Source of the DNA: Meloidogyne chitwoodi
Taxonomy: Eukaryota; Nematoda; Chromadorea; Rhabditida; Meloidogynidae
Direction of reading: 5' to 3'
DNA length: 64,000 nucleotides
NCBI GenBank assembly: GCA_015183035.1
Contig: JACZZP010000019.1
Location: forward strand, 806,001-870,000
Part shown: one piece after another, positions 986-49,440 of the stretch
How the letters are laid out: each line of letters starts with the position of its first letter
How positions within the stretch are numbered: position 1 is the first letter of the stretch
Notes under the pieces: generated by a model
Seen by the model: the letters and a program-made list of their open reading frames with translations, nothing else
What the model was told of the DNA's origin: nothing
The model's database searches: none
Made by a program: the position numbers and the translations under genes

Positions 986-991
986 ATTTTT

Positions 992-2350: not shown

Positions 2351-2439
2351 TGCAACAAAAATTTTAAAAATAAACAAATGAATGATTTTCAAAATTTTGA
2401 TGATCTGCTTTTATACAACAAATTAAGCCACGCCCACTT

Positions 2440-30361: not shown

Positions 30362-30969
30362 TAAGAGTGCTGGGTCGAAATTTCGAAGTTCGAGATTTCG
30401 GGGTTTTTATTTCGAGTCCCGGAATTTTGGGCTCTGGAAAGTTGGGCTCTAAGATTTTTCGGAAAGTTGGGCTCCAACTTTTCGGAATTTTGGGCTCAAT
30501 TGGAAAGTTGGGCTCTAACTGAAAAAAAGTGAAAAAGCGGAATTTTGGGCTCTAGAATTTTGGGCTCCGGAGGAATTTTGGGCTCTAAGTGAATAAATAC
30601 CTATCCATTTTAGGGCCCATGGCCGGTTGGTCTTCGCGCAAACTTGGATCTATTGATAGTGTTTTATCACTTATCCATTTTTCAGTCGTTCCGCTCGACA
30701 TTTACTCTAATATATATAAGTTATATGACAACGTTTATTCACTTAGAGCCAAAATTCCTCCGGAGCCCAAAATTCTAGAGCCCAAAATTCCGCTTTTTTC
30801 ACTTTTTTTCAGTTAGAGCCCAACTTTCCGAAAAATCTAGAGCCCAACTTTCCAGAGCCCAAAATTCCGGACACCTTTTATTTCGAATAATTTCGATTTA
30901 GCGAAATTATAAAATTTCGATTTCGAAAGAATTTTATTTCGACTTTTTCCCAATTTCGACCCAGCCCTG
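30362..30969. mobile_element. long fold-back element with nested fragment
   Basis: Arms of about 240 bases: TGCTGGGTCGAAATT...against AATTTCGACCCAGCCCTGG, with AATTTTGGGCTCT and AAAGTTGGGCTCT repeated in each. The loop holds a fragment of family 5 (CCCATGGCCGGTTGG). Confidence 0.8.
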
Positions 30970-31299
30970 GTCTTAAGACACTAAATTTAAAAGAAAGGTC
31001 TCGAGACATAAAATTTTTATAAATGTATATGTTGCTTTAACGACAAATTTACTATTCAATAAGAGAATTTTTATAGCCTCTAATTAAATCAATCTGTCAT
31101 TCATTTACCTTTTTTAGCCCTCTTTTTTTTAAATTTTTTTTAAATATTTTATGTAATTTTAAATTTATTAAATTTTATTTTATTTACATATTATTAATAA
31201 GTTAAATAAAACCTATATAATACAATAAGTATAACCTAAATTTAATCAGTTAAATTTAGAAAAAATTATTTAACGATTCCAAAAGTTTTAAAATTAAAA

Positions 31300-32245
31300 A
31301 TGAATTGTTTAAAAACTTTTGTACTCACACTGCTAGTAATTCTGATTATTTACGAAATTCAAATTCTTGATGCGTGCTTGACTGGATGCGGTGGGGCATC
31401 GGATGTACATGGTAAATATTTTTTAAAGTTTTCTTCTAGAGAATAGAAAAGAAAATCATTTATTTAAAATAATTAAATGAAATATTCAGAACCAAGACCA
31501 CCCGTCCATCTTCGTAGACAACAATTTTCACATCCTATGTCTTTACCAACAGAAGGTCAAACTTTACCTATACCACCGCCAGGTGAATGTTTGAATTTTT
31601 TAAACTAAAAAATTTTTTTTATAAAATTTTACCAAGTGAAAATAAATATAGAAAGTAAATATTAATTAGGGTTTTTGTCTCAACAGTTTTTCGACTTTAT
31701 TAAATTCTATATTAAAAATAGGTAATTTAAAACGGCTCATCGAACCAAATAACTTTTCTGTAGAGTAAATTTTTAATCTAAAAATGAGTTTTCGATCACC
31801 CTCTGAGTAAATTTCTAAAAATATTTTCTTATAAAAAAGGATCAAGTGTTAGACCTGAACGAAGACATGATGTTCTACCTCAACCAGTAGGTGGTATGTT
31901 TAATTTTATTTTTTATTTGTGTAAAAATATACAACATTAAGAAAATATTAGGTTTTGATTTTCGATAAAGTTAGGCATCGTTAGTGCAAGAGATCGGACA
32001 AGACCTAGATCTGGATTTTTCTTGGATCCAAAGTCCAGTTCAATAAATTTAATCAGATCAAATATTTAAAATTCCGATTTCTAGTTGACACAATAAAATT
32101 AAAATAACTCTTACTTATTATTTTTTAATAAAAAAATTTCCTCTTATGATTACACTCTGTGTAGTTTTGAACTAATTTATATATTTAAGGCACCCCTCCG
32201 CTTCGAGAATCTCGTTCTTATCGTGTCAGTTATCATCACGACTAG
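31300..32245 (+). CDS. secreted mosaic Pro-rich protein, array copy A (intact)
   Basis: Four exons: 31300-31411, 31490-31582, 31840-31893, 32190-32245; 315 bases, 104 residues, all GT/AG, all introns phase 1. Exon 1 encodes the array's signal peptide (MNCLKTFVLTLLVILIIYEI..., cleavage likely after ILDA) and a Cys/Gly linker (CLTGCGGASDVH). Exon 2: EPRPPVHLRRQQFSHPMSLP then TEGQTLPIPPPG. Exon 3: SSVRPERRHDVLPQPVGG. Exon 4: TPPLRESRSYRVSYHHD and stop. After processing this would give short Pro/Arg/His-rich peptides outside the cell. No known family; the build resembles nematode secreted peptide effectors. It is the shortest and cleanest of four copies. Confidence 0.75.
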
Positions 32246-32399
32246 AGCAAGTGATGCACACCTTACAAATATTATTTGAAGATGAAATATTATTTTTGCA
32301 AAAAAAAAATGGAATGGATACCTAAAGTATACAAGTTGCTTGACGTTTCTATGTTAAAAAACTTTAAAAAATTATTTTAAAAACTAAAATTTAAAGTTT

Positions 32400-32700
32400 T
32401 TTCCATAATTATTAGAGCTTGAGAAATTTTCTTCTAAAATTTTGTATTAATTTAAATTTTTTTCAGTTTAATCCAAGCTCTAATAAGCAACACTATTTTG
32501 TAAATTTAACCAATTTTTCCATTTATCTAGCTTTGTAGACAAAAATCCGATATTGTTGACCCTCGGATTTATTATTCTAATCGGCATTTATTCCCCCGAT
32601 TATGATAAAGGATTTTTTGAATTTTTTTAATATTGTTTGAATAATACAAGTAAAAATTTAGTCACCGAACAGGTTTCGAACCTGCAACCTCCCTAAAGGG
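32400..32700. repeat. array 3' block, copy A
   Basis: A conserved block that follows every array gene: a long hairpin whose feet are TTATTAGAGCTTGAGAAA and TCCAAGCTCTAATAA, then AAAAATCCGATATTGTTGAC with CCTCGGATTTATT (a second small hairpin), then CATTTATTCCCCCGATTATG, ending with a tRNA-T-arm-like GGTTTCGAACCTGCAACC. Other copies: 40740-41030, 44470-44720, 48415-48675. Confidence 0.75.
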
Positions 32701-33039
32701 CAAGCCGAAATTTTTGGACCAGAACTTCGGGACTTTCGCTTCGAATTTTAAATTTCTCTCCAACACTTGAATTTAGAATTAACTTCATTTTTAAGTATTT
32801 TTTAATAAATTATTGAACAGTTAGGGTCTTTTGGAAAGGCGAATAAACCAATTTTGTTAAAAATTAAGCGCCAGTCTCGAAGCTTCGGTAGCTCACCTCT
32901 TAAGTGTATTCTCACACAAATAGATGTCTAAGAGCTAAAAAATATCGAAAATTAAAAAATATTAAAATCGAAAACTTTTTCAAATAATGTTGGATATGAA
33001 CGTTGGTCTTTTATAGACACCTTCACCACAAGGCGGCCA
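32701..33039. repeat. degraded repeat sequence incl. an LTR fragment
   Basis: 32705-32770 resembles the GACCAGAACTTCGGGACTT text seen at 44725. 32990-33025 (TGTTGGATATGAACGTTGGT then CTTTTATAGACACC) is the end of the LTR-like element of 46995-47245 in inverse orientation. Confidence 0.5.
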
Positions 33040-33640
33040 AATGACATTTCCCGAATCCTCCGAGAACATATTACCTAATAAAACTTTTTTTGGTCAATCA
33101 GGAATCCTTGTCGGAGGATTAAATTGAAATTTGTTAAATCCGTTTCAGCTCTCAAGCATAAAAAAAAAATTTTTTTTAATTTTTTAAAGTTTTAATTATC
33201 GAAGGATTATGTATTTTAGGTAGAAGTCATATGCTAGGGAATTTTTTATTGAGGAAACTCACATGATCATTGACAAAATTTCTAAATTTTTTATTGGGAC
33301 CCTAACATGATCAGTGCCATTTCTTCGAACGTCTTATTATCGTCGACAAACGACTCCTCTTTTTAAAGGCAATGAGGTTAAGACATCTATGGGCAAGACA
33401 ACAAAAATTAATTTATTCATGTGACAGATCTTTAGATGTATAAAAAAGGAAGAAAATGCTCTAAAACGCACGCGCATAAATACCAATTTATTTGATTTTG
33501 ATGGGGAATTTTAATTAAGACCTTCACATTGTGAAGAGCAGTATCATTTCTCCGAATGTCTTAATTCGCTTCGAAAAACTCCTCCTCGTTTTAATGCAAT
33601 AAAAGAAAAGAATTTATGGACTTTCCATTTCTCTTAGATT
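33040..33640 (+). pseudogene. decayed gene of a second, interleaved family, copy 1
   Basis: Shares with 42045-42940 a series of exon-like pieces: GGCCAAATGACATTTCCCGA (reads PNDISRILREHI in copy 2, stop here), FFGQSGILVG, and two related Cys modules. The better module here reads LRPSHCEEQYHFSECLNSLR then KTPPRFNAIKEKNLWTFHFS and stop (33509-33640). Frames are cut by stops (TTTTAATTAAG at 33509), so no full protein remains. The family is unknown; the HxxxQYHFSEC pattern suggests a small Cys-rich secreted domain. Confidence 0.5.
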
Positions 33641-33832
33641 TACCCTTTTTAGTCTCTTCTTTTTTAACTAAATTTTTTAAATTTTTATATAAAATATATT
33701 CTTTTATATTTTTTTAAATTTTATTTTATTATTAAATCGTTAAATAAAATTTATAATACAAAAACTAGAACCTAAATTTAATTAAGTTTTTAGAAAAAAT
33801 TATTTAACGATTCAAAAGTTTTAAAATTAAAA

Positions 33833-36800
33833 ATGAATTGTTTAAAAACTTTTGTACTCACACTGCTAGTAATTCTGATTATTTACGAAATTCAAATTAT
33901 TGATGCGTGCTTGACTGGATGCGGTGGCGGTGGGGCATCGGATGTAATTGGTAAATATTTTTAAAGTTTGCTTCTAGAGAAAAGAATAGAAAATTATTTA
34001 TTTAAAATAATTGAAAAAATATTCAGAACCAACAACAGCCGTTCATCGTCCTAGACTAAATCAACAACCTCCTCGAGCTGTACCTCTACCTGGTAAAATT
34101 GTTTAAATTTAAAAATTATTTCATAAGTTTGATTCTTAAGATAGAAAAAAGTATTTATTTATTTAAAATAATAAAATTAAATATTCAGAACCAACAACAA
34201 TACATCACAGTCCGAGTCGAACTAATCCTCCTCCAACTTTACCTGGTAAAATTGTTTGAATTTTTAAAGTTAAAAATTATTTTATAAGTTTGATTCTAAC
34301 ATAAGGGTAGAAAAAATATTTATTTCAAATAATAAAATTTAAACTTTTATTTAAGTAAAATATTCCGCATTAAACAAATATACCTACCTATATTAGGTTT
34401 GAGTTAAGATGAAGTTCCGCATTTGTTATTTAGCAAATACTAATTTAAAATTATTTAGTAAAAATATTGCCACAACAAACTAAAATATTACTTAATTTCA
34501 TATTATTTATTAGATATGAAAAATAATTTCCGTATATATTTAACCAGTGATCGGAAATTTCAGTTCCGGAACTGGAACCATGGAACTACTAAATTTCTGG
34601 AACAGGTTTGGAAATGAACTGTGAAATCAATTGATGCCTGGAACTTGTTCCGGAACTAGAACCATTCCGAACTAGTTCCTAACCCCACAATAGTTCCAGA
34701 ACTGGAACTGAACTTATAAAAATGCAGTTCCGGAACTGGAACCGGTTCCAGTGGAAATTTTGGAACTTTCCTATTTATTTAAAATAATAGAATAAATATT
34801 CAGTACCCGTTTATCGGGCTCTCGGATTGGGCAGTGGAAAATTGGGCAGTGAAGAAACAGTACAAAAACTTGCAAGAAAATACAAAAATACATGAAAAAT
34901 ACAAAAACATAAAAAAATTTTGTGTTACTGATGTATTTGTGTTTTTATGTATTTTTGTAATGTATTTTTGTTTTTTCATATATAATTGGTAAAAACAAAA
35001 ATGTATTTTTTATGTAAAAAACACAAAATACATGAAAAATACATAAATCTTTTTATGTATTTTTGTGCTTCACATATGTTTTTATATTTGGGGTCGCTTT
35101 AGTATATCGGGTCCGAGCTAGAAACATGTACTATATATCAATCGATTCCCCTCGTCGAGCTGAGCACGAATATTTAAGAATTTCTTGACAGAGACGAATA
35201 CTCGCTGAGATACAGGTCCCTGAAACTTGAAAAACCATAGGGGGGACCAAGCTCTTTTCGGGGTGAAAAATTCGAATATGAGTATGATAGCTCATTCGAA
35301 AGAGCTCTTCGAGACCTATCGAATGAGACCAAAATTGTCGTGATTGGACGATTTTGACAATGTTATGAAAGATCGAATTTTGCTGGAAACACGCCAAACT
35401 TGGACCTATTGGGAGTGTTTTATGACTTCTTCATTTGGAGCCCATCTCTCGTTGGCTTTTTGGTACATGCGTTATTCTACGGCGCAAATTACAACAAAAT
35501 AATTAATTCAGTGAAAATAATTTATGTGCAGCCGCGGAAATCACTTTGAAGAGCTTACTCCCCCCTATGGTTTTTCAGGTTTCAGGGACCTGTATCTCAG
35601 CGAGTATTCGTCTCCGGCAAGAAATTCTTATATATTCGTGCTCAGCTCGACGAGGGGAATCGATTGATATATAGTACATGTTTCTAGCTCGGACCCGATA
35701 TACTAAAGAACAGCTTTTTATTTTCTTGCAAGTTTTTGTACTGTTTCTTCACTGCCCAATTTTCCACTGCCCAATTTTCCTAACACGGTCTATCGTCCTA
35801 GACAACGATTTTCACAGCTTCTACCTTTACCAGCTACGGGAAGTAAAATATTTAAAATATTTTACTATTAAAAATATTTTTATAATATTTGATTTTAGAG
35901 GATAGAAAAGAATTGTTTATTTAAAATAATTAATAAAATTACAATATTAAGATTCACCCAATCGTTCTCCACCACATCAAGGTAAAATTTTGAATTTTAA
36001 AAATTAAACCAAATTTTTATAATATTTTACCCAATTGAAAATATAAAAAACAGTAAAAATACATTTTGGTTTTTTGTCCGCAACGGCTTTTAAAAGTTAA
36101 TAAATTACTCTTTAAAAATAATTTAATTCGGCTCACCTAACTAAATAACTTTTCTATTGAGTATAACTTTTAATTTAAAAATTAGTTTCCGATCCCCCCT
36201 CTATGTGTAATTTTGCTAAAATATCTAATTATATAATTGAGAATGTTTGTCTGTTTGTTTGTTTGTCCGGTTTTTATAGACAAGTGATTGGGGGAAGTGA
36301 AAATGGGGGGTTTTTATAGTAGGGTTTGCAACTTGAAATAAGGTTTAAGTTTGAAATTAAAACATGAAAATAAACTTAGAACTTAAAACTTGAATATAAA
36401 CTTGAAATTAAAACTTGAAAATAAACTTAAAACTTGGATACTATAAAAACCCTGTATTTTTATCAGTCTTTAACACCACTACATTTCAACACTACAAACA
36501 TAAACAACGCTCTTTGCTGGATTTACTTCAATATGGACGCCGACGAACCTTACTGCTCCAGTGACGCCATAAGAAAAGAAGCCGTGCTGAGGAGTCTGAG
36601 TCAGAGATGCTTGTGTTAGAGACGCTTGAGTAGAGACGTTTGAGACAGAGACGCTTGACTCAAAGACGCTTGAGTCAGAGACGCTTGAGTCTTAAGCTGA
36701 GAAACATGAGTAAGAGAAACGTGATTTTGAATAAGTGATAGTTGAGTCTGAGTAAGAAGCACTTAAGTGAGACACTGAGTCTGACAATGAGTGAGAGACA

Positions 36801-39800
36801 TTTGATTCTGAATAAGAGACACTTGAGTCAGAAACATTTGAGTCTCAGTATTTATGTGTTTTTTCTTTTAAAAAGTTTATAAGTGTAAATGTTTTTATTG
36901 TCAAGATATTTTAAGTTTATTGTTTTTGCTAGCGGAGAAGGACGCCCGAAGGGCGTCCTTCTCCGCTAGTTTTTTATAAAAAAAGATCAACGCGAAGAAC
37001 AATGGCAAGATTATCTATCTAAAGCAACGCCACATGCTCTACCTAATCCATATGGTAAATTTATTTGATTTTATAACTTATTTATTTAAAAATAGTATCA
37101 TTAATGGGTCCACCCCTATAGATCGAAACCCTATAGATCGAATGAACCAATTTGTCCAATTGCCAATTCGGTCAAATCACTTCAAACAATTTGGCCCTTT
37201 CAAACTGTTTTATTACTTCTCCATTTTAGAGCCCATGGCCAGTTGGTTTTTTTGCAAACTTGGACCTATTGGGAGTGTTTTATTACTTTACCATTTAAGG
37301 GATTTGACCAATTGGCAAATTCGATCAATAGGGTTTCGGCCTATAGGGGTGATCCGTCATTAATCTATGAGTAATTTTATAAATATTTTTTTATAAAAAA
37401 GGTGGAAGCGGTCAACAAGGGTTAACTTTTCAAGAAGGAGACCCTCGACATCCTCCACCATTTGGTAAATTTATTTGATTTTATAACTTTTATTTATTTA
37501 AAAATATGTATCATTAATCTATGAGTAATTTTATAAATATTTTTTTATAAAAAACGTGGAAGAGGTAAACGAAGGTAAAAACCTTTACCATCATCATCTG
37601 GTAAAATTATTTGATTTTATAACTTATTTATGTAAAATATTCCTCATTAAACAAAATAGCAACGGCTTTTAAAATTTAATAAATTACTCTTTAAAAATAA
37701 TTTAATTCGGCTCACCTAACTAAATAACTTTTCTATTGAGTATAACTTTTAATTTAAAAATTAGTTTCCGATCCCCTCTCTATGTGTAATTTTGCTAAAA
37801 TATTTTTTATAAAAAAAGATCAACGCGAAGAACAATGGCAAGATTATCTATCTCAAGCAACGCAACATCATCTACCTAATCCACCTGGTAAAATTATTTG
37901 ATTTTATAACTTATATTTATGTAAAATATGTATCATTAAACAAATATACATATATTACCTAGGTTTGATTTAAGATAAATTTCCGCATAATTACTAGCAA
38001 TAAATTTAAAATGGAACTTGTGTATAGTTTAGGTAGACACTCCATATATTCGCAGAAAATGGGTGGAAATGGTTGATTTATATATCATTAGAAAGAGCTC
38101 GTATAGCTTAGTCCAATAACACAAAATTAGTCCGTTGTCTTAATTTCAGCCCTTGATACAGGTCCCTGAAAATCAAAAAACCATAGGAGGGAGTAAGTCC
38201 TCTAAGTGATTACCGCGGCTGCTCGCACAAACCTGGATCTATTGTGAGTCTTTTATAACGAAAAATTAATTCGGCTGAAATAATTTAAGAGCAGACGCGA
38301 TAATGCCGTGGCTACACAAAAAACGCTTAGCGTCTTGCGGCTAAAAAGAGTATGGAAAAGAAGAGATTTTCTCTAACGGCGTCTTTGTCTCTCTTCATTT
38401 TCCATTCTCTTTTTAGCCGCAAGACGCTAAGCGTTTTTTGTGTAGCCACGGTATAATCACTTAAAAGGGAACATAGTTTACTGTAAGTGCGAATTTGATA
38501 TTAATTTGGGTACCAATGGATAAAGCAACCCCGACTTTCTATTGCGAGGTGAGTTTCTTTTCTTGCAAAATGACTTTAAACCGAGCTACAGCAGTTCAAA
38601 GTTTCAGTCTTTGGGAGCAGACGTGTGCGAAACGTTTCGTTTCGTTTCGTAGTTTCGTCAGTTTCATGACTTTTTTCAGCTTAGTTTCGTTTCGTAACGA
38701 AACAGAATTTAAAATGTTTCGTTTCGTTTCGTTACGAAACACTCATCTTTGTCACGAAACAATACGAAACAAAATTTATTGAAAATTTCCAGTTTTGGGT
38801 AAAATTTTTGAACTTTTTACTACAAATGGCAATAATTTTTCAAAATTTTCGCCTGCGGCGCTAAAAAAATTTTATGAAAGTTACCCTACCCGAATATTTT
38901 ATTAAATCCGGAACAACCCTGTTTGAATACTTTTCTCCGCAGAGAAAAAAATTAATTTCAAAAATTTTAAGAGTTTTCTTGCATAAAAATATCCCCTACA
39001 AAATATAGATCAAGGATTTAGAAAAATCCTTGATCTGGATTCTGGATCTTGATTTTTTTATTGACCTGGACTGGATTCTGGATCTGGAGTCAAGGAAAAA
39101 CCAGTTCCATGAAAAATCCAGAATGTCCAAAAATGCCTTGATCTGGACTCTGGATCCAGGAAAAATCCAGGCCTGGATTCAGATCCAGCTCGATATCTAC
39201 TCCAAAACCTCTTTGATTTGACCATTTTGAAATTTTTTTGACCATTTTGAGAAAAAACGGATATATCCGTGGATTCCCGCAGACCTATATAGCAATTTGA
39301 AGACGGATATAAAACGGATATGGATATAGAGCCCAACTTTCCGGTCAGGTCATTTTGTGACCGCAAAAAGGCCGGTCAGGAGAACACTGGCTCTAAATTC
39401 AAAAATTCTTGCCTGCTGCACAATTTATTTTAAAATATTGTAATGTATCGCACAAAAATGTGTTTAACATTGAAAATTTAAAGAAATACCGTATTTTTTA
39501 TAATTTTAATGTTTAGTTTAGTTTCGTTTCGTTTCGTAAAAATTTGGCTGTTTCGTTTCGTAACGAAACAATTTTAAAAAATTTTTGTTTCGTTTCGTTT
39601 CGTTGGAAAAAATTTTGGTGTTTCGCACAGGTCTGGTCCGAGTCGAACTAATCCCCCTCCAACTTTACCTGGTAAAATTGTTTGAATTTTTAATTTTAAA
39701 ATTTATTTCATAACTGAAGAACATCCACTTCATCCGTCTCAACGTACACCAACGAGAGGTAAGATAGCCTGAATTATTTAAAATTAAACACAATTTTTAT

Positions 39801-40666
39801 GATTTTCCCTCTCTATTAATAAATATTTTCTTATAAATAAGGTCAACAAAGTCAATTTCGGCAGCCATTGAATTCTCTACCTCGTCCTCCAGCTGGTAAA
39901 ATTATTTGATTTTATTACTTTTATTTATGTAAAATAGTCCTTATTAACCAAATAGGTATGTTTGTTTTACGATTTTTCCGCATTTGTTATTTAGCAATAT
40001 AAATTTAAAATTATTTAGTAACAATATTGCCACAACAAACTGAAATAACTTCATTTCATATTAATCATATTTGAAAAATAATTTCCTTATTTATAACAAT
40101 TGATCGGAAAGTTCCAAAATTTCCACGGAACTAGTTCCAGTTCCGGAACTTGTTTTTGAATTTTTGCAGTTCCAGTTCCGGAACTGCATTTTTAATTTTC
40201 ATAGTTTCAGTTCCTGAACTATTGTGGGGTAAGGAACTAGTTCCGGGCCAGTTCCAGTTCCAGAAATTTGATAGTTCCATAGTTCCAGTTCCGAACCAGT
40301 TCCAGAAATTTGATAGTTACATAGTTCCAGTTCCGAACCAGTTCCAAAAATTTGGTAGTTCCAGTTCCTGAACTGGAACTTTCCGATCACTGATCGGAAT
40401 TTTTGGTTCCTGAACTGGAATTACCAAATTTCTGGAACTGGTTTAAAACTAAACTATGAAACTAGTTTATGCTTGGAACCTAACCTCACGCCGTTCCAGA
40501 AATGGAACTATGAAAATTAAAAATGCAGTCCCGGAACTGGAGCCGATTCCAGTTAAAATATTGGAACATTCTGATATCTGATTATAACACTTTACTTTGT
40601 TAAACTAATATTATTACTATTAAAGGTTACTATGTCGAGCAACCAAACGAGGAACCAAATGAATAA
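33833..40666 (+). CDS. secreted mosaic Pro-rich protein, array copy B (long, heavily inserted)
   Basis: Exons supported by AG/GT and phase 1: 33833-33950 (signal peptide, CLTGCGGGGASDVI), 34027-34092 (EPTTAVHRPRLNQQPPRAVP..), 34189-34245 (EPTTIHHSPSRTNPPPTLPG), 34804-34816 + 35796-35838 (VPVYRPRQRFSQLLPLPAT, split by an insertion), 35952-35981 (NSPNRSPPHQ), 36986-37054 (DQREEQWQDYLSKATPHALP..), 37402-37464 (GSGQQGLTFQEGDPRHPPPF), 37819-37887 (DQREEQWQDYLSQATQHHLP..), 39720-39758 (EHPLHPSQRTPTR), 39842-39895 (QQSQFRQPLNSLPRPPA), 40626-40666 (YYVEQPNEEPNE, stop). An exon remnant at 37560-37600 has lost its acceptor and 39641-39671 has lost its 5' half. The order and use of exons in mRNA are inference; exons 36986 and 37819 are near-duplicates. 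Introns hold a Helitron and several fold-backs. Confidence 0.6.
34555..34775. mobile_element. MITE family 1 copy in array gene B
   Basis: Starts CCAGTGATCGGAAATTTCAG and contains the GTTCCGGAACTGG core and TAACCCCACAATAGTTCC box; the right terminus is eroded (ends GGAACTTTCCTATTTA). Confidence 0.75.
34817..35787. mobile_element. MITE family 6 copy carrying a nested fold-back, inserted in an exon
   Basis: Outer ends GGAAAATTGGGCAGTGAAGA and its complement; flanks GTTTATCG (34809-34816) and GTCTATCG (35788-35795) are an 8-bp duplication with one change, lying inside a coding exon of array gene B. Inner element about 35106-35700 has its own arms (TATCGGGTCCGAGCTAGAAA and complement) and the family 3 core (CAGGGACCT, GGAAACACGCCAAAC). 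Confidence 0.85.
36224..36969 (+). mobile_element. non-autonomous Helitron with clean empty site
   Basis: Begins TCTAATTATATAATTGAGAA followed by TGTTTGTCTGTTTGTTTG, ends with a perfect 17-18 bp GC hairpin (GCGGAGAAGGACGCCC GAA GGGCGTCCTTCTCCGC) and CTAG. It sits exactly between A and T with no target duplication. The duplicated intron at about 37795-37812 shows the uninterrupted sequence CTAAAATATTTTTTATAAAA. These are all Helitron hallmarks. Inside: a TATAAAA box at about 36440, a small ORF (MDADEPYCSSDAIRKEAVLR, 36530-36619) and a GAGTCAGAGACGCTT minisatellite. No Rep/helicase, so it needs a partner. Confidence 0.9.
37108..37365. mobile_element. MITE family 5, copy 2
   Basis: Ends GGGTCCACCCCTATAGATCG and CCTATAGGGGTGATCCG; same internal TATTGGGAGTGTTTTATTAC box as 11083-11352, opposite orientation. 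In an intron of array gene B. Confidence 0.8.
38030..39640. mobile_element. cluster of nested insertions in array gene B
   Basis: Contains a family 3 fragment (38060-38290), a perfect fold-back with arms CCGTGGCTACACAAAAAACG and complement (38296-38451), the left arm of the 47688 element (38467-38625, GGGAACATAGTTTACTGT), an outer repeat of TTTCGTTTCG words with ends GTGCGAAAC and GTTTCGCAC (38622-39634), and inside it a GGATCTGGATT-type repeat (39000-39200) and a CCGGTCAGG fragment (39340-39380). The insertion removed the 5' half of one array exon (39641). Confidence 0.65.
40105..40575. mobile_element. two MITE family 1 copies side by side
   Basis: The first (40105-40392) ends GGAACTTTCCGATCACTG; the second (40393-40575) begins TCGGAATTTTTGGTTCCTGA. 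Internal AGTTCCATAGTTCCAGTTCC is tandemly repeated three times in the first. Located in the last intron of array gene B. Confidence 0.75.
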
Positions 40667-40739
40667 AAACATTATTGTAGGCTATGATTTGATGATGAGA
40701 AGATGTATTTTAAAAACTGAAATTTCGATTTTCACATTA

Positions 40740-41030
40740 TTATTTATTAGAGCCTGAGAAATTTTCTTTTAAATTTTTTTTATTAATTTTAATCTTTTTT
40801 CAGTTTAATCCAAGCTCTAACAAACAACACTCTTTTGTAAATTTAACCAATTTTTCATCTATCTAGTTTTGTAGACAAAAATCCGATATTGTTGACCCTC
40901 GGATTTATTTTTCTAATCGGCATTTATTCCCCCGATTATGATAAAAGATTTTTTCAATTTTGTTTTTAATATTGTTTGAATAAGAGAAGAAAAATTTAGT
41001 AACCGTACATGGTTCAATTATAGGGCATTT
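40740..41030. repeat. array 3' block, copy B
   Basis: Same hairpin (TTAGAGCCTGAGAAATTTTC and TCCAAGCTCTAA), AATCCGATATTGTTGACC block and CCCCCGATTATGATAAA as after copy A; the T-arm-like end is altered (CATGGTTCAATTATAGG). Confidence 0.75.
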
Positions 41031-41154
41031 TAAATTAATTATTTTTATATAACGAACATCAAAAATACAACAAAAATGCGGATTATAATTCAAATATTAA
41101 TTCATTAAAAGTTTTTAATTCTTTTATTGATAAAATTACCCCCAAAGAAAATTG

Positions 41155-41255
41155 AGGAAGAAGATTAAGAAAATGAAAAAGTCGAAAAGAAATTGAACAA
41201 AACAAATTTCCTCAAAGAAATTTTTTTTTAATTTTTAACAAACAGTTCTCCCCTT
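41155..41255 (+). repeat. transposed copy of the 3' end of the 26-kb secreted gene
   Basis: GAAGAAGATTAAGAAAATGA and the following 80 bases match 28245-28345 (last codons, stop and 3' UTR of the secreted gene) almost base for base, including AAAAAGTCGAAAAGAAATTG. Confidence 0.75.
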
Positions 41256-41419
41256 ATCCACTTGAGTTTTTAAAAAGTAGTTTAAATAGATTTGTGATAT
41301 TACTTTTATCTTTTTCTCTAAATATTTATATATTTTCTTATTTAGTTGATAAATGCTTTTTAGTTTAAATTATTTTAAAAAATTTTAATATTTCCTATAG
41401 ATAAGAGTTAAATGATTTA

Positions 41420-41527
41420 TAAAAGAGATCGCGCCGACCCGATTCCCGAAAATCGGGAATTTAAATTTTCGGGAATTCCCGATTCACGAAAATCGGGAAT
41501 TTAAATTTTTTTCGGCGCGATCCCTGA
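41420..41527. mobile_element. short palindrome of CGGGAATTCCCG words
   Basis: Ends GATCGCGCC and GGCGCGATC enclose repeated AATCGGGAATTTAAATTTTC. Similar Gs/Cs-rich 'CCCGAT/ATCGGG' patches occur at 29850-30020, 49140-49310 and 56780-56880. Confidence 0.6.
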
Positions 41528-42044
41528 ATTATATGTATAAAAAATGTTTTTATTGAAGAAACCGCTTTCCTCTCTCATAAATACTTAATAAAATTGAATG
41601 GACTGAATAATTTTAATTTTTTTAAACTTTTTTCCGTCGTACAGATTTAGACCGACCTAATCAATTTATCCGCGTTATCTCATTTGATCTTGATCTTCAT
41701 AAAAAAAGCTGAAATATGTCAAATGAGATAGAGTTTTAGCTTTCAAATCGTTATGGCTTGTGAAAATCGGACGAAAATTTGAAGAGTTTAATTGGATTTT
41801 TAATAGTTTAATATTATCGATTATTAATTATTTAAATTAAATTTTATTTAATTTAAATAATTTTTTATGAAAATAAAACAAAGGAGTTGAATGAAATGAG
41901 AGAAATTGATATTTAACAGGAAAAAAACTGTTTTTGTGATGGAGACTATGTTCTCTTCGCTCTTCTCTATGGAGCGAAGAGAACATACTACACTAAATGG
42001 TAGTGTTTAACTGCGGTTATTTTCTCTTCGCCTCGAGGTGGCCT

Positions 42045-42940
42045 AATGACATTTCCCGAATCCTCCGAGAACATATTAATAACACTTTCTTTGGTCAATC
42101 AGGAATCCTTGTCGGAGAATTAAATTGAAGTTTGTTTAAATCCGTTTCAGCTCTCAAACATAACAAAATAATTTTTTTTATATTTTTTAAAGTTTTAATT
42201 ATCGAAGGATTATGTATTTTAAATGCGAGTCATTTGACATTCGTAGGGAATTTTTTTACTGAGAAACTCACATGATCAGTGCCATTTCTTCGAATGTCTT
42301 TATTCATGTCGACAAACGCCTCTTCATTTTAAAAGCACTGAAGTTAAGACATCTATGGGCAAGACACAAAAATTAATTTATTATGTAAGTGCTTTATTGA
42401 TTTAAATGTATAAAAAGGGAAGAAAATGCTCTAAAACGCACGCGTATAAATACCAATTTATTTGATTTTCGTAGGGAATTTTTTATTGAGACCCTCACAT
42501 TGTGAAGATCAGTACCATTTCTCCGAATGTCTCAATTCGCTTCGAAAAACGCCTCCTCGTTTTCGTGTCGGGGCAAAATACATTATAGACAAAATACATT
42601 ATGACCAAAATACATTATTTTATTTTGGCGCATTAATTTTTTGGCGTTGGTTTATAAAATAGTCGAACGTTAGTCAAATTTTAACGGTAAAAAAATTAAT
42701 ATATAACAATTAAACATGTTAAAAAATTTAAAATAATGAAAAGATTTCTTCAAAATTTTATAAATTTAACAAAGTTGACTATATGATAAACCAACGCCAA
42801 AAAATTAATGCGCCAAAATAAAATAATGTATAATGGTAATAATATATTTTGCCCCTTACCCCTCGTTTTAAAAGTGCAATAAAAGATAAACATTTATGGA
42901 CTCTGCTTTTTCTCTCAGATTTACACTTTTTAGTCCCTTC
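42045..42940 (+). pseudogene. decayed gene of the second interleaved family, copy 2
   Basis: Better preserved than 33040-33640. Pieces in order: PNDISRILREHINNTFFGQS then GILVGELN and stop (42052-42127); HDQCHFFECLYSCRQTPLHF (42268-42340); FLLRPSHCEDQYHFSECLNS then LRKTPPRF (42475-42560); and SAIKDKHLWTLLFLSDLHF (42862-42925) after a fold-back insertion. The two Cys modules are diverged duplicates of each other (HxxxQxHFxEC..S.R.TP..F). Frame breaks and the insertion make an intact product unlikely; the family is unrecognised. Confidence 0.5.
42561..42858. mobile_element. fold-back element inserted in the second-family copy
   Basis: Ends GGGGCAAAATACATTAT and complement-like ATAATATATTTTGCCCC; inner arms TTTTGGCGCATTAATTTTTT and complement. 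The flanks share CCTCGTTTT (42550s and about 42862), while the paralogue at 33588 reads straight through CCTCCTCGTTTTAATGCAAT. Confidence 0.75.
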
Positions 42941-43149
42941 TTTTTTATCTAAATTTTTTAAATTTTTATATAAATATATTCTTTTAATTTTATTAAATTT
43001 TATTTTATTATTGATAAATAATTTAAATAAAACTTATAATAGAAGAAATAAAGCCTAAATTTAATTAATAGAAGATCCAGAACCTAAATTTAATTAATTT
43101 AAATTTAGAAAAAATTATTTAACGATTCAATCAAGTTTTAAAATTAAAA

Positions 43150-44374
43150 ATGAATTGTTTAAAAACTTTTGTTGTCCCGCTGCTAGTAATTCTGATTATT
43201 TACGAAATTCAAATTCTGGATGCGGGAAGATGGAGTTGGTCATCGTGGTTTTTTGGATGTAAAGTGGCAGTATATCGTAATTATTTTATAAGTTTGATTC
43301 TAAGGATAGAAAAAAAAATTATTTATTTAAAATAAAAGAATAAAATATTCAGACCTAGAACCAATAAGAAGAACACCCGATCATCATATGCAACAAGATA
43401 ACTAATTTTTCGCCTCCACATAGACCAACAATAGATAAGATCGCCTAAATTATTTAAAATTAAACAAAATTTTTTAAGATTTTACCCAATGAAAATATAA
43501 ATAAACAGTAAATTTTATTTTTGGTTTTTGTCCGCAACGGCTTTTCAAATTTATTAATTTACGACTTTAAACATAATTCATTGAACTATATAACTTTTTT
43601 GTACTTTTTAATTTAAAAATCAGTTTCCAATACTCCATCTATTTGTAATTTTCAAAAAATATTTTCTTAAAAAAAGGTCAACCTCTGCCAGAACCATCAC
43701 CACCATCATCACCACCATCATCAACACGATCATCACTACCATCACCACCATCACTACCATCACTACCACGATCACCAACACCATCACCCCCATCATCACC
43801 ACCACGATCACCACCATCACTACCATCACTACCACGATCACAAACACCATCACCACCACGACAAGGTAAAATTATTTGATTTTATAACTTTTATTTAGAT
43901 AAAATATTCCTCATTAAACAAATATATATATTAGGTTAGAGTTAAGATAAATTTCCGCATAATTATTTAGCAATATAAATTTAAAATTATTTACTAAAAA
44001 TATTGCTACAACAAACTAAAATAACTTAATTTCAAATAAAAAATAATTTCCGCATATTATAAGTGATCGGAAAGTTCAGTTCAAGAACTGGAACCATGGA
44101 ACCAACAAATTTCTGGAACAGGTTTGGAACTGGAACCATGAAACTAGTTGATGCCTGGAACTTGTTCCGGACTAGAACGGGTCCGAACTAGTTCCTAACT
44201 CCACAATAGTTCCAGAACTGTAACTGAAACTATGAAAATTAAAAATGCGGTCCCGGAACTGGAACTAGTTCCAATGGAAATTTTGAACTTTCGATCACTG
44301 ATTATAACACTATTTAAGTTTGTTAAACTAATATTATTACTTTAGTTTTCAATGTCATTGAACCCGAGGAATAA
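43150..44374 (+). CDS. secreted mosaic Pro-rich protein, array copy C with Ser-Pro exon
   Basis: Exon 1 43150-43276: same signal peptide, then GRWSWSSWFFGCKVAVY. Candidate exon 2 (43353 on) reads LEPIRRTPDHHMQQDN then a stop; beside it a further exon has lost its donor (ATAG|ATAAGA instead of GTAAGA). Exon 43677-43865 (189 bases, phase 1 both ends) encodes a 60-residue Ser/Pro repeat, QPLPEPSPPSSPP then SLPSPPSLPSLPRSPTPSPP, like extensin-type SPP tracts. The last exon 44346-44374 reads VFNVIEPEE and stop. Joining exon 1 directly to 43677 stays in frame, so an mRNA that skips exon 2 would encode signal peptide, Ser-Pro domain and acidic tail. The minus-strand Val/Met-rich frame here is a shadow. 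Confidence 0.6.
44062..44305. mobile_element. MITE family 1 copy in array gene C
   Basis: Ends AGTGATCGGAAAGTTCAG and CTTTCGATCACTG, with ATTATA on both flanks; core GTTCCGGAC and CCACAATAGTTCC. Confidence 0.8.
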
Positions 44375-44469
44375 TATTAACATGAATGTAGGCTATTATT
44401 ATTTGATGATGAGAAGATGTTTATAAAAACTTTAAAAAATGATTTTAAAAACTGAAATTTCGATTTTTT

Positions 44470-44720
44470 CCATTATTATTTATCAGAGCCTGAGAAATTT
44501 TCTTCAAATTTTTTTATTAATTTCGAACTTTTTTCAGTTTAATCTAAGCTCTGATAGACAACACTATTTTGTAAATTTACCTATTTTTCCATCTATCTAG
44601 CTTTGTAGACAAAAATCCGATATTGTTGACCCTCGGATTTATTTTTCTAATCGGCATTTATTCCCCGATTATGATAAATGATTTTTTAATTCGAACCTGC
44701 AACCTCTCTTAAGGACAGAC
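44470..44720. repeat. array 3' block, copy C
   Basis: Hairpin feet TATCAGAGCCTGAGAAA and TCTAAGCTCTGATA have compensating changes relative to the other copies (GAGCTTG/CAAGCTC versus GAGCCTG...AAGCTCTGA), then the AATCCGATATTGTTGACC block and TTCGAACCTGCAACC. Confidence 0.75.
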
Positions 44721-45399
44721 CGAAATTTCCGAACCAAATCTTCGGGATTGAGGCTTCGAATTTTGAGTCCCGGAAAATTCCTCTCCGGAAAATTCCTCTC
44801 CGGAAAATTCCTCTCCGGTGAATTTCTCTCCAGACTATCGGAAAATTCTTCTTTTAGTGGAAATAATCCGAGATAAATGTTGAAAAATTTAAAGTTATTT
44901 TAGATCATTTTAATATTATTATTCTAACATAGTATAATACAGTTTTTTAAGCGATCCAAAATCCTTTTAATAATAATTTAGGAAGGATTTTTCTTTTAAA
45001 AGAGGTATTTTACAGAGAGAATACTTACGCTTGGAGAGGAATTCTCCGAGAGGAATTTTCGGACACCTCGGATTTTAAATTTCCTTCAAACACCTAAATT
45101 CGAATTAACTTCAGGTTTTAAGAATTTTTAAATAAATGATTGAATATGATTTAAAAAAAGTACATGAGACAATGAAATTTAAATAAAAGTTCACGAGACA
45201 TTAGCATATATAAATGATTATATATAAAGATAAATTTACCATTCAATCAAATATTAATTTTTATAGCCTTTAATTAAATCAATCAGTCATTCACTTATCT
45301 TTATTAGTCTTTCATCTTTTTAAAAAATTTTAAATATTTATATAAAATATATTTTTTTTTATTTATTATTGCTTAATAAGCAGTGCTTGGAAGGTCATA

Positions 45400-45545
45400 C
45401 CAAAATCATGCTCATACCTCATACTCATACCTCGGTATGAAGTATGATGTATGAGACCTAAAAAAGGTCGGTATGATGTATGATAAAATTAGCAGGTATG
45501 AAGTATGAGTATGAACAAAATCGAAAATTCCAAGCACTGTTAATA
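45400..45545. mobile_element. short fold-back of CATACCTCATACT words
   Basis: Ends GTGCTTGGAAGGTCATACC and complement-like TCGAAAATTCCAAGCAC; inside, TATGAAGTATGA and TCATACCTCATACTC alternate. Lies in the promoter region of array gene D. Confidence 0.7.
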
Positions 45546-45634
45546 AGTTACAAAAACTATTATAAACAGAGCCTATATTTAATCATTTAAATTTAGTAAA
45601 AATTATTTAAAGATTCAAAAGTTTAAAATTAAAA

Positions 45635-47342
45635 ATGAATTGTTTAAAAACTTTTGTACTTCCATTGCTAGTAATTCTGATAATTAACGAAATTCAAATT
45701 ATTGATGCATGGTGCAATAACAAATCGAGTGTACAGGGTAAATATTTTTATACATGTTTTATTCTAGCTCCCGAAAAGTGGGTCAGTGGAAAATTGGTCA
45801 GTAAAAAAAGTACATAAAGTCAAATAAAAAATAAAAATATATGAAAAACACAAAAATAAATGAAAATTTTTTTGTTTTTGATGTTTTTGTTGCATGTTTG
45901 TGTTGTTTTTTGTTGTTAATATACATTTTGGAAAAACACGAAAATGTATTTTTGAGTAAAATAGAAAAAATAATGAACAATACACAAATACTTTTATTTA
46001 TTTTTGTGCTTTACATGTTTTTGTGTTTTTCCTTTATATACTGTTTTTTCACTGTTTTTTCACTGCCCAATTTTCCTAGCACATTTATTCTAGAGGATAG
46101 AAAAGAAAATTAATTAAAATAATAGAATTAAATATTCAGTATCACAACAAACCGTTCGTCGTCCTAGACCACAATCTTCACAGCCTCAACGTTTACCAGA
46201 ACCTCGAGGAACGGGAAGTAAAATTTTTGAAATTTTTAAAATTATACAACATTTTTATAATATTTATTTTATTTTAGAGGATAAAAAAGAATTATTAATT
46301 TAAAATAATTAATATAATTACAATATTAAGATCCACACGATCGTTCTAGAGATCAAGTTGGTCAAACTTTACCTACACCACCGCGAGATTATCGTTTGAA
46401 TTTTTTTAAATTAAAGCAAATTTTTATAAGATTTTACCCAAGTGAAAATATACATAGTAAATATTAATTAGGGTTTTCATAACTTTAATCTAAAAATTAT
46501 TTTCCGATCACCCTTATGTGTAATTTTGAAAAAAAATATTTTTTTATAAAAAAGGTCGACGCCCTCAACGTAGGCCAAATGTTCAATCTGAACTAAAACA
46601 TTACGTGTCAGGGCCACATCCTCTACAGCCTCCACCATCTGGTAAAATAAGTTTATTTTATAACTTATTTTTTTAAATATTCCTCTTTAAACAAATTATA
46701 TGCATTACAATTTTATTTACGACAAATTTCCGCATCATTATTTAACAATACTAATTTAAAATAATTTAGTAAAAACATTTCCACAAAAAATAAAATACTT
46801 AACTTAATTTCATATTAGTTAAATGTTGCAACTTAAGTATTATAACTTAAGTGTGTCCGAGATTAACGTGGTCGATCAAAAAAGCAAAGGTTTATCCAAA
46901 GGGAAATAAAGTAAGAGTGAAGGTAGAGAAATAGGGAGAAGTGGCGAGCGTTGACTGATTTATAATTGGTGCTTATATAGTACTTGTTGTATCTCAAGTT
47001 TCCTACTTAAGTACAACTTGTGTGTCCGAGATACTGAAGAGTAGTCGAGCAACAAGCAAACAGTTTATCACGTTGAAATACAATGAAAGTAGAGAATAGG
47101 AAGTGTAGTTGTAGGCGATGATACAGGTTGCGATAAGATTTGGTCGAGGGTTAACTCCCAGACTGGTTATTTACTGGTGCTTATATATTATATTGACTAG
47201 ACCGTTAAAGGTGTCTATAAAAGACCACCAATATACAACATTAGTATATATAAAAAATAATTTCCGCATATTATTACGCTATTTTGTTTAACTAATTTAT
47301 ATTACTATTAAAGGTTACTTTGTCACAGAAACTGATGATTAA
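45635..47342 (+). CDS. secreted mosaic Pro-rich protein, array copy D
   Basis: Exons: 45635-45737 (signal peptide ending IQIIDA, then WCNNKSSVQ), 46140-46217 (SQQTVRRPRPQSSQPQRLPE..), 46331-46387 (PHDRSRDQVGQTLPTPPR; its donor has changed from GTGAAT in copy A to ATTATC, so it may be skipped), 46555-46641 (RRPQRRPNVQSELKHYVSGP then HPLQPPPSG), 47314-47342 (YFVTETDD, stop). Introns are phase 1 throughout. The first intron carries a family 6 MITE and the last an LTR-like pair. The fourth exon contains a string, HYVSGPHPLQP, that loosely resembles plant CLE peptides (V-P-S-G-P-N-P-L-H). Exon usage is inferred. Confidence 0.65.
45768..46078. mobile_element. MITE family 6, copy 3
   Basis: GTGGAAAATTGGTCAGTAAA at the left and CACTGCCCAATTTTCC at the right, CAAAAATACA-type arms; in intron 1 of array gene D. 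Confidence 0.75.
46823..47245. mobile_element. two adjacent solo-LTR-like units
   Basis: 46823-46994 and 46995-47245 both start near TGTTG, share CTTAAGT..GTGTGTCCGAGAT, and the second ends TATAAAAGACCACCAATATA then CAACA. The TG...CA ends, a TATAAAAG box and the match to 63759-63972 suggest LTRs left after recombination. A diverged inverse copy is at 51975-52195. Confidence 0.6.
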
Positions 47343-47399
47343 TAATAATCATGATTGTAAGTTCATCTTTATATTCTGAAAAATTTTTAAATTATTATA

Positions 47400-47680
47400 C
47401 CGTATTCATTCTAATATAGTCGCATCACGCCTTTTCGTTTTCCGATACTAATGTCTCTTCAGAGAGCCTGTGTAAAGGCTACTCCATGTGAAAAAGACGC
47501 AGGAACTGTGTATGGAAAAGAGTAGGTCATTTGATTTTCTCTGACCTCAGCCATCTGGTCAGTTTTTCTTTCTTTTCCACACGAGAGAGTAGACTTTAGC
47601 ACAAGTATTCTGAAGAGAAATGTAGTATCGGAAAACGAAAAGGCGTGATACGACTATATTAGAATAAATACGGTAATATA
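47400..47680. mobile_element. fold-back element with near-perfect arms
   Basis: TACCGTATTCATTCTAATAT and CGCATCACGCCTTTTCGTTT at the left; complements at the right (AAACGAAAAGGCGTGATACG). Located between the last exon of gene D and its 3' block. Confidence 0.8.
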
Positions 47681-47687
47681 ACTAACA

Positions 47688-48286
47688 AGGGAACATTGTT
47701 TACTGTGAGTACGAATTTGATAATTTTTTTTGTACCATTGGATAGAGAAATCTCGACTTTCTATTGTGAAGTAAGTTTCTTTTTCTTGCAAAATGACTTT
47801 AAACCGAGATATAGCCGTTCAAAGTTTCAGTCTTTAGGAGCGCTAGAGTAAAGAGAAGAAAGAGGGAAAAGAAGAGAGAGGACAAGGCAGACCTTTTTAT
47901 AACATCTAATGCTTTTGACCATTTTTAAACATTTCACGCTGCCTACCCTTTTTTCCTTCTCTTCTTTTAAATTGAAAACGGATGGCTGACTGTCTACCGT
48001 CTCTCCGACACTAACCTCACTATTTTCGCTTATAAGGAAGCAAAGAGAGATTAGAGAAAGAAAAAGCAAAGAGAGACAAGAGTAAAATCGCTCTCTTCTT
48101 TTCTTTCCTTTTACCAAATACTCTAGCGCTCCTAAAGACTTAAACTTTGAACGGCTATATCTCGGTTTAAAGTCATTTTGCAAGAAAAAGAAACTTACTT
48201 CACAATAGAAAATCGAGGTTTCTCTATCCAATGGTACAAAAAAAATTATCAAATTCGTACTCACAGTAAACAATGTTCCCTTGTAA
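47688..48286. mobile_element. 599-base fold-back element
   Basis: About 175-base arms: GGGAACATTGTTTACTGTGA and complement, containing CCGAGATATAGCCGTTCAAA. A single diverged arm of the same family is at 38467-38625. Confidence 0.8.
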
Positions 48287-48414
48287 GTAAAAACGTTACA
48301 TAACTAAAATTTATTTTTAGTTGTTGGCTATGATTTGATGATATGATGAGAACTTGTATATAAAAACTTTAAAAAATGATTTTTTTATTCAGAAAAAAGA
48401 ATTTAAATTTTTTC

Positions 48415-48675
48415 CATAATTATTAGAGCTTGAGAAATTTTTTTCTAAATTTTTATTAATTTAAAACTTTTCAGTTTAATCTAAGCTCTAATAGACAAAA
48501 CATTTTGTAAATTTAACCAATATTCGATTATTTAGATTTGATATAAATCCGAGTTGACTCTCGGATTTATTTTTCTAATCGGCATTTATTCCCCCGATCA
48601 GATAAATGATTTTTTCAATTTTTGTTATAATTGTTTGAATAATATTAGCAAAAATTTAGACACGGATAGGCTTGA
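48415..48675. repeat. array 3' block, copy D, displaced by insertions
   Basis: TTATTAGAGCTTGAGAAATT and TCTAAGCTCTAATA hairpin, then the AATCCGAGTTGACTCTCGGATT hairpin region and CCCCCGATCAGATAAATG. It belongs to gene D; the two fold-backs at 47400-48286 moved it about 900 bases away. Confidence 0.7.
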
Positions 48676-49440
48676 ACCAGTGATTGGAAAGTTCAAATCA
48701 ACTAGTTCAGTTCCGGAACGCATTTTTAATTTCCATTGTTCCAGTTCCGGAACTATTGTGTGGTGAAGATCGGACCGGTTCTAGTTCCGGAACAAGTTCC
48801 AGTTCCAGAAATTTAAAGTTCCGGAACTGAAAATTTCCCATCACTGCCCACAAACCATTCTTATATTAAACCTTTTAGAGATAGCAAAACGACCAAGTCA
48901 TTTCGGCGCTTTCTGACACTCGCACCAAAAAGGTCTTTTTCCAGACTTAAAGTACAAGAATGTTACAAACTTTCAGACCTTTCCCATTTTATCCCTTTTG
49001 GCGCTAGACTTTTTACTATTGAAACTAAGTTTCTATGTATGATGGTATATTTATAACAGAAAAAATGAAAGCATATTGATAAAAATATACCCAAAGAATA
49101 ATTCAATTTTTGGATTAAAAAATATATATATTAGAGCTAGGCGCGGGACGGGATCCCACGCGGGATTTTGCGGTATACCGCTCCCGCAATCCCGCACTTT
49201 TTAGGATTTGCGGGATTTTCTGGAATGCGGCACAGGATTAGTTCCGCAGATCCCGTCCCACACAATTTTTTATAAATACTCCCGCTCCCCGCAATCCCGC
49301 AAATGAGATTTAGCCTACTCTAATTTAATAAATATATTTTTTTGAATAAAAAAATAAATTTGAAATTCTCATAGTATAATTTATATAAAACCTAAAAAAT
49401 AAATTAAAAAAAATAAATTTTATTTTTATTACAATATTTT
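48676..49440. other. repeats without a gene
   Basis: 48678-48847 is a family 1 MITE (CCAGTGATTGGAAAGTTC to TTTCCCATCACTG). 48890-49020 is GC-richer with an inverted CGCTTT pair but no ORF. 49140-49310 is a CGGGATCCCG-rich patch. No coding evidence. Confidence 0.6.

What the first reader, a model, noticed from the sequence alone, without database searches (positions are those of the whole stretch)
31300..47342. Tandem array of four secreted, modular Pro-rich protein genes: a combinatorial peptide system
Seen: four plus-strand genes share a nearly identical signal-peptide exon and upstream sequence, but their middle exons differ in number and sequence (2 in A, about 9 in B, 1-2 in C, 3 in D). 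Every middle exon is 30-190 bases and encodes a Pro/Arg/His/Gln-rich peptide of 10-63 residues. The tails are short. Inference: fast-evolving secreted peptides, perhaps host-directed effectors of a plant-parasitic nematode. I know of no described family with this architecture.
Basis: partly seen in the sequence, partly recalled or inferred. Interest (0 to 1): 0.88.

Follow-up and report, generated by a model that had tools for sequence, protein, structure and literature searches.

The report
Nematode genes built from exchangeable proline-rich exons
In what is very probably the potato pest nematode Meloidogyne chitwoodi, four neighbouring genes share one secretion-signal exon but carry different sets of small, in-frame, proline-rich exons, a build that lets secreted peptides diversify quickly; what the peptides do is not yet known.

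Summary
Four plus-strand genes (ATGs 31300, 33833, 43150, 45635) share a signal exon found four times in the 47.5-Mb genome. They carry 2, 8, 1 and 2 intact middle exons of 30-189 nt, plus five broken ones, and a short tail exon. All 13 intact modules are divisible by three, follow phase-1 introns and are open in that frame; random placements averaged 3.2 of 13 open (maximum 8), and proline is 26.7% against 3.1%. Seven of 13 carry [LVI]PxP near their end (shuffle maximum 4). Intron edges stay alike while exons do not (9 of 11 pairs). Assembly size and contig number match M. chitwoodi Race 1. The signal exon found one homologue among 5.8 billion proteins, a 97-residue M. graminicola 'secreted protein' (70% identity) continuing into a proline-rich stretch ending LPLPPG. 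Best reading: a secreted, probably host-facing family that diversifies by duplicating, lengthening, recombining and losing symmetric exons. Transcription, alternative splicing, gland expression and host targets are unproven; the dorsal-gland motif gives no support. Closest in build: schistosome micro-exon genes, aphid bicycle genes, reniform-nematode CEPs; no sequence link to these was found.

The parts
31300..31411 (+). gene A signal exon
31490..31582 (+). A2 intact module, 93 nt, phase 1-1; found once in the genome
31840..31893 (+). A3 intact module, 54 nt, phase 1-1
32190..32245 (+). gene A tail exon with stop
32365..32620 (+). shared 3' block of gene A with hairpin element
33833..33950 (+). 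gene B signal exon
34027..34092 (+). B2 intact module, 66 nt
34189..34245 (+). B3 intact module, 57 nt
34804..35842 (+). B4 module, interrupted by a MITE-like insertion (outer arms 34826-34886 and 35715-35775, 98% complementary); described only, not joined
35952..35981 (+). B5 intact module, 30 nt
36986..37054 (+). B6 intact module, 69 nt
37402..37464 (+). B7 intact module, 63 nt
37556..37600 (+). B8 decayed module (AC in place of the acceptor AG, stop inside)
   Evidence: sequence read directly
37819..37887 (+). B9 intact module, 69 nt, duplicate of B6
39636..39671 (+). B10 truncated module, 35 of 36 nt identical to the end of B3
39720..39758 (+). B11 intact module, 39 nt
39842..39895 (+). 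B12 intact module, 54 nt
40626..40666 (+). gene B tail exon with stop
40700..40957 (+). shared 3' block of gene B
43150..43276 (+). gene C signal exon
43353..43405 (+). C2 module that runs into a stop
43677..43865 (+). C3 intact module, 189 nt, made of 9/12-nt tandem repeats
44346..44374 (+). gene C tail exon with stop
44436..44690 (+). shared 3' block of gene C
45635..45737 (+). gene D signal exon
46140..46217 (+). D2 intact module, 78 nt
46331..46388 (+). D3 module without a donor (end approximate); 24 of 25 nt in its 3' part equal a stretch near the 3' end of A2
46555..46641 (+). D4 intact module, 87 nt; found once in the genome
47314..47342 (+). gene D tail exon with stop
48376..48612 (+). 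shared 3' block of gene D

Best explanation
The locus is a tandemly duplicated family of four small secreted-protein genes in (very probably) Meloidogyne chitwoodi. Each transcript joins a conserved signal exon to a variable set of symmetric (phase 1-1) exons that encode short, probably disordered, proline-rich modules, about half of them with an LPxP-type motif near the end, and closes with a short tail exon. Because every module begins and ends in the same phase, modules can be duplicated, lengthened by repeat slippage, recombined, skipped or lost without breaking the frame. Conserved intron edges act as the scaffold while the coding modules diverge. Shown by sequence: shared signal exon, phase symmetry, composition, motif, module duplication, sharing of module ends and decay, and a homologue in M. 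graminicola. Inferred: that the genes are transcribed and spliced so, that the product is secreted and extracellular, that it faces the plant host, and that the divergence reflects diversifying selection. Not shown: alternative splicing and molecular target.
For: Signal exon in four places of the genome. 13 of 13 modules symmetric and open. [LVI]PxP within the last 9 residues in 7 of 13 modules, shuffles mean 0.54, maximum 4 in 2000 (the motif was chosen after looking at the modules). In 11 of 78 module pairs both intron flanks align at z>5, and in 9 of those 11 the exons align at z<3 at both ends. A versus B: signal exon 3 of 112 aligned sites differ, first intron 6 of 76, module A2/B2 16 of 66 (plus 27 gap columns); module vs intron p=0.0099, signal exon vs module p=1.2e-5. 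Module turnover: B6/B9 duplicate, D3 sharing its end part with A2, B10 truncated copy of B3, C3 repeats, insertion in B4. Homologue P0124 in M. graminicola: signal exon z 16-19 against 4 of 4, followed by 29 residues with 24% proline ending LPLPPG (such a motif in 171 of 20000 shuffles). Plant-parasite genome; assembly match to M. chitwoodi Race 1.
Against: No transcripts seen. Seven of the 11 acceptors listed end in AAAAAG or ATAAG, which is atypical (by recalled nematode consensus). Five of 18 modules are broken, so C and D may be decaying genes. None of the four ATGs has a + strand Mel-DOG motif within 1 kb. B6 vs B9: exon 6 of 69 vs introns 7 of 211 differences, p=0.09, and six of six changes nonsynonymous has chance 0.23, so of the two pairs tested by counts only A2/B2 is significant. 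The signal exon is not significantly slower than the intron (p=0.16). The module of the M. graminicola homologue resembles D4 (z 3.9) and weakly A2 (z 2.4); the other 11 of 13 stay below z 2, and 4 of 4 tail exons do not match (z<2). A first protein search with the signal exon frame found nothing.
Confidence: 0.68

Rival explanations
1. A micro-exon-like combinatorial system: alternative splicing of the symmetric modules gives each worm a pool of many secreted isoforms (gene B with 8 optional modules could give up to 256).
For: All 13 intact modules are symmetric, so any subset stays in frame; atypical acceptors could favour skipping; B, C and D would need to skip broken modules to reach their tail exons.
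Against: No transcript data. Symmetry alone also results from exon duplication. In R. reniformis CEP genes with one intron per domain, no alternative splicing was found (PMC5103176, passages).
Confidence: 0.3
2. Ordinary fixed multi-exon secreted proteins with low-complexity proline-rich bodies (for example cuticle, duct or egg-matrix proteins), changing fast only because disordered sequence is weakly constrained.
For: Repeat-built C3; no Pfam match for the 6 of 13 modules tested; only one of two pairs shows a significant excess of exon change.
Against: A2/B2 changed more than the neighbouring intron (p=0.0099), which relaxed constraint alone does not give; a motif near the module end in 7 of 13.
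Confidence: 0.3
3. A mostly decayed array: gene A (and perhaps B) works, C and D are pseudogenes.
For: 5 of 18 modules broken: C2 has a stop, D3 lacks a donor, an insertion sits in B4.
Against: All four signal exons are open, and all four genes keep a tail exon and at least one intact module.
Confidence: 0.2
4. Mimics of plant proline-rich peptide hormones, each module a ligand.
For: Short Pro/Arg-rich secreted modules; nematodes make CLE, CEP, RALF, IDA and PSY mimics (PMC12825991, abstract start, passages).
Against: No CEP core of the kind printed in PMC5103176 is seen in the 13 module translations. CLE and IDA motifs were compared only by eye from recall; no match is claimed.
Confidence: 0.1

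Closest known systems
Schistosome micro-exon genes (MEGs)
   Same: Secreted host-interface proteins, most coding sequence in very small symmetric exons, mature part with higher dN/dS than the signal peptide (PMC4350168, passages).
   Different: Said there to appear restricted to platyhelminths and to use alternative splicing; here exons are 30-189 nt, Pro-rich, in a nematode, and splicing is untested.
Aphid bicycle genes
   Same: Putative gall effectors, secreted, with many small internal exons, almost all starting at codon position 2, as here (PMC9168663, passages).
   Different: Average about 17 exons, minimum 5, with CYC motifs; saposin-like folds (PMC13041983, title in the listing). Here 3-10 intact coding exons and no cysteine in the modules.
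Rotylenchulus reniformis CEP effectors
   Same: Secreted nematode peptides, variable number of domains, one intron per domain, two genes cloned in tandem (PMC5103176, passages).
   Different: Domains are highly similar CEP hormones; here the modules differ and carry no CEP core.
HYP effectors of Globodera
   Same: Modular hypervariable middle between conserved ends, secreted (PMC11228951 and PMC4177990, passages).
   Different: The whole variable domain is transcribed as a single exon and varies in the genome; here each module is its own predicted exon.
Meloidogyne graminicola Mgra_00007624 (P0124)
   Same: Same signal exon (70% identity over 93%) followed by a Pro/Arg-rich stretch ending LPLPPG.
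   Different: Only one module-like stretch, different tail; its gene structure was not available to me.
MAP-1 family of root-knot nematodes
   Same: Secreted, internal repeats vary in number and arrangement (PMC3377709, passages).
   Different: Repeats are highly conserved; that paper's table scores M. chitwoodi as negative.

Membership tests
Micro-exon genes | most coding sequence in very small symmetric exons | tested here: met
   13 of 13 intact modules symmetric, 30-189 nt; MEG exon sizes of a few to some tens of bases are recalled, so the size match is loose
Micro-exon genes | signal peptide | tested here: met
   hydropathy only; no SignalP run
Micro-exon genes | isoforms by alternative splicing | not testable with these tools
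   no transcripts
Micro-exon genes | sequence homology to a MEG family | tested here: inconclusive
   the only hit of the signal exon is from M. graminicola; modules were not searched in that database
Bicycle genes | internal exons start at codon position 2 | tested here: met
   13 of 13
Bicycle genes | CYC motif | tested here: not met
   no cysteine in the 13 modules
CEP effectors | CEP core sequence | tested here: not met
   13 module translations read by eye against the CEP peptides printed in PMC5103176
CEP effectors (R. reniformis) | one intron per domain | tested here: met
   each module is a separate predicted exon
HYP effectors | variable domain within a single exon | tested here: not met
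   each module is a separate predicted exon
MAP-1 | conserved 13- and 58-residue repeats | not tested
   no sequence comparison made; paper table only
Mel-DOG dorsal-gland effectors | TGCMCTT within 1 kb upstream | tested here: inconclusive
   no + strand copy for 4 of 4 genes, one reverse copy at 42872 before C; the source establishes the motif for clade I species (PMC8158474, passages)
Gland effectors | expression in pharyngeal glands | not testable with these tools

The most novel reading that the evidence does not exclude
A nematode counterpart of schistosome micro-exon genes: a single-locus system, confined to some Meloidogyne, in which conserved introns carry a replaceable stock of symmetric exons, and alternative splicing plus rapid exon turnover supply a changing pool of secreted proline-rich ligands to a gall-forming parasite, in parallel with the bicycle genes of gall aphids.
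Probability: 0.25. Interest if true: 0.85.

Novelty: new variant of a known kind. Interest (0 to 1): 0.62.

Why it matters
If expressed in infection, this would put the symmetric small-exon build of schistosome MEGs and aphid bicycle genes into a further, unrelated parasite lineage, and a second gall former. It offers a clear test of how parasites make variable secreted peptides (splicing versus exon turnover). The locus can be compared between the sequenced races of M. chitwoodi. It also shows why homology searches may miss such genes: the signal exon is the part that is conserved, and it is too short for an ordinary search.

Tried and rejected
Rfam: no match at gathering cut-off in the window; for the 3' hairpin of gene C one sub-threshold match (Termite-leu, minus strand, 20.5 bits against a cut-off of 51), taken as chance. 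The hairpin folds of the four array copies are only modestly better than shuffles (z -1.3 to -3.3). Pfam: 0 of the 6 modules run matched; the other 7 were not run. PDB sequence search of D4: 0. Other copies of modules A2 and D4 in the genome: none; the other 11 modules were not searched as proteins. Intron and module DNA of B and C found matches only inside the array, apart from one 39-base match on C25. Descent of the array from the kinase-like array at C11:266-283 kb: the shared 3' element is real, but I found no other link, so it stays a side observation. Dorsal-gland regulation by Mel-DOG: no support. Simple pairwise identity of exons and flanks was uninformative because gaps inflate it; replaced by shuffle z-scores. 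Tail homology between gene A and the M. graminicola protein: rejected (z -0.14). That D3 begins like B5 is an impression by eye; one search lists no such match. A likeness of the A2/A3 junction to a plant abscission peptide, seen in reasoning, was judged too weak. Paper searches; none of the listings named this family, but the library lacks most subscription papers and I could not open supplements.
Full report
What is there. Reading 30500-49000 and checking exon edges gives four plus-strand genes. Each has a signal exon, one or more intact internal exons, and a short last exon with a stop. The start regions are homologous and were found nowhere else in the genome: four matches for the DNA and four for the translated exon at E up to 10. 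The N termini are strongly hydrophobic, and all four signal exons have at least one cysteine after the hydrophobic stretch. Downstream of each gene lies a shared 3' block.

The modules. There are 13 intact internal exons: A2, A3, B2, B3, B5, B6, B7, B9, B11, B12, C3, D2 and D4. Five more are broken (B4, B8, B10, C2, D3), so 13 of 18 are intact. All 13 have lengths divisible by three and follow a phase-1 intron. In that frame 13 of 13 are open; the other five frames give 8, 5, 6, 1 and 0 of 13. Length-matched placements in the rest of the array gave 3.17 open on average and at most 8 in 1000 draws; proline is 26.7% against 3.1%, and GC 0.47 against 0.29. I chose the exons partly by openness, which inflates the contrast, and B6 and B9 are duplicates. 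A scan by splice-site motifs, written after I had seen the exons, gave 11 rows: 8 of the 13 modules, all 8 open with length divisible by three, and two tails and the stop-bearing C2. Seven of 13 modules carry [LVI]PxP in their last nine residues; 2000 shuffles never exceeded 4. That motif was chosen after looking.

How the modules evolve. For 78 module pairs I compared 60-base intron edges and exon ends with shuffled controls. Eleven pairs are alike on both intron sides (z>5); in 9 of the 11 the exons are not alike at either end (z<3), and in 1 of 11 they are (z>5). Between A and B the signal exon differs at 3 of 112 aligned sites, the first intron at 6 of 76 and the module A2/B2 at 16 of 66, with 27 gap columns. 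The contrast of module and intron has p=0.0099; that of signal exon and intron is not significant (p=0.16). B6 and B9 are recent duplicates: 6 of 69 exon sites and 7 of 211 intron sites differ (p=0.09); all six exon changes alter the protein, but the chance of that is 0.23. So diversifying selection is suggested, not proven. Turnover is direct: B10 is a truncated copy of B3, D3 shares 24 of 25 bases with the end part of A2, C3 consists of 9/12-base repeats, and a 950-base inverted-repeat element sits inside B4.

Whose genome. The assembly holds 47,477,280 bases in 30 contigs. A meeting abstract gives 47.47 Mb and 30 contigs for Meloidogyne chitwoodi Race 1 (PMC9871597, passage), and a database paper gives 47.5 Mb and 30 contigs for the species (PMC10706385, table passage). 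Pectate lyase exons (34 matches, 33 over the cut-off) fit a plant parasite. I take the species as very probable; no marker sequence was compared.

Relatives. A first search with the 48-residue signal-exon frame found nothing; the tool admits only proteins of similar length. Padding the exon with X found one protein in 5.8 billion: P0124, Mgra_00007624, a 97-residue 'secreted protein' of Meloidogyne graminicola, E=4e-5, 70% identity over 93%. It aligns with 4 of 4 signal exons (z 16-19) and continues with 29 residues of 24% proline that end LPLPPG, the form seen at module ends; 171 of 20000 shuffles of its non-signal part hold such a motif. That stretch resembles D4 (z 3.9) and A2 (z 2.4); the other 11 modules score below z 2. 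Its tail matches none of the four. The same database holds annotated M. hapla proteins, as an actin control showed, yet no M. hapla relative appeared; the search needs shared five-residue words, so this is not proof of absence. The homologue supports the build from a second species: signal exon kept, module different. I had no access to the M. graminicola gene's DNA, so its exon structure is unknown.

Regulation and neighbours. None of the four genes has the Mel-DOG motif (PMC8158474, passages) on the + strand within 1 kb; one reverse copy lies 278 bases before C. The 3' hairpin core has eight genome matches with up to three mismatches, all on this contig and strand, none in the reversed control; with gene D, whose loop is shorter, there are nine. 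Three of the five distant copies follow genes of a second array, whose signal exon occurs four times in the genome. In two of those four genes an exon matches the protein kinase family (PF00069, E 3.8e-6 and 1.8e-5, below the curated cut-off). Two pieces of a third gave no match, and the fourth was not tested. In the two genes whose upstream DNA I read (L037, L039), TGCCCTT stands 47 and 45 bases before the ATG.

How it may work. Shown: shared signal exon, symmetric modules, recurrent module birth, sharing and death, modules less alike than the intron edges around them. Inferred: transcription, secretion, and action outside the cell as flexible proline-rich chains. The most economical account is a secreted, probably host-facing family whose exon symmetry lets it change content without losing the frame. 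Alternative splicing would make it combinatorial, but this rests on possibility alone.

Comparison. Schistosome MEGs (PMC4350168, passages) and aphid bicycle genes (PMC9168663, passages) share the symmetric small-exon build; in bicycle genes almost all internal exons start at codon position 2, as here. R. reniformis CEPs (PMC5103176, passages) have one intron per domain and no known alternative splicing. HYP effectors vary within a single exon (PMC11228951, passages). I found no sequence link to any of them, though modules were not searched in the large protein database. The M. chitwoodi effector papers do not mention such a family in what I saw: PMC12614787 (abstract, sections 7 and 8, passages) and PMC8509085 (term counts and one passage from its reference list). 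Their gene tables are in supplements that I could not open. Hence: a new variant of a known kind.

Noticed in passing
window 32525-32620, 40861-40957, 44596-44690, 48525-48612; C11:126604, 161461, 269370, 278069, 282712: A roughly 90-base element with two predicted hairpins and a nearly constant 26-base core; nine copies, all on contig C11 and the same strand, downstream of the four array genes, of three genes of a second secreted family, and at two other places.
   Followed up: partly
L037:6299, L038:422, L038:4666, L039:407 (C11:266-283 kb): A second array of four genes with a different signal exon; protein-kinase matches in exons of two of the four (L038); TGCCCTT 45-47 bases before the ATG in the two read (L037, L039).
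   Followed up: partly
window 629-2982 (-): ORFs with a poxvirus A32-type ATPase match (PF04665, E 9.8e-6) next to other ORFs; looks like a Maverick/Polinton-like element (element name recalled).
   Followed up: no
window 34826-35775 and about 45775-46090: Inverted-repeat elements that look related by eye, one inside module B4 (arms measured) and one in the first intron of gene D (read only).
   Followed up: partly
window 26041-26457 (+): Open frame of 138 residues with a hydrophobic, secretion-type N terminus and no Pfam match.
   Followed up: no
window about 38300-38455: A large palindrome seen by eye in a long intron of gene B, probably another inserted element.
   Followed up: no
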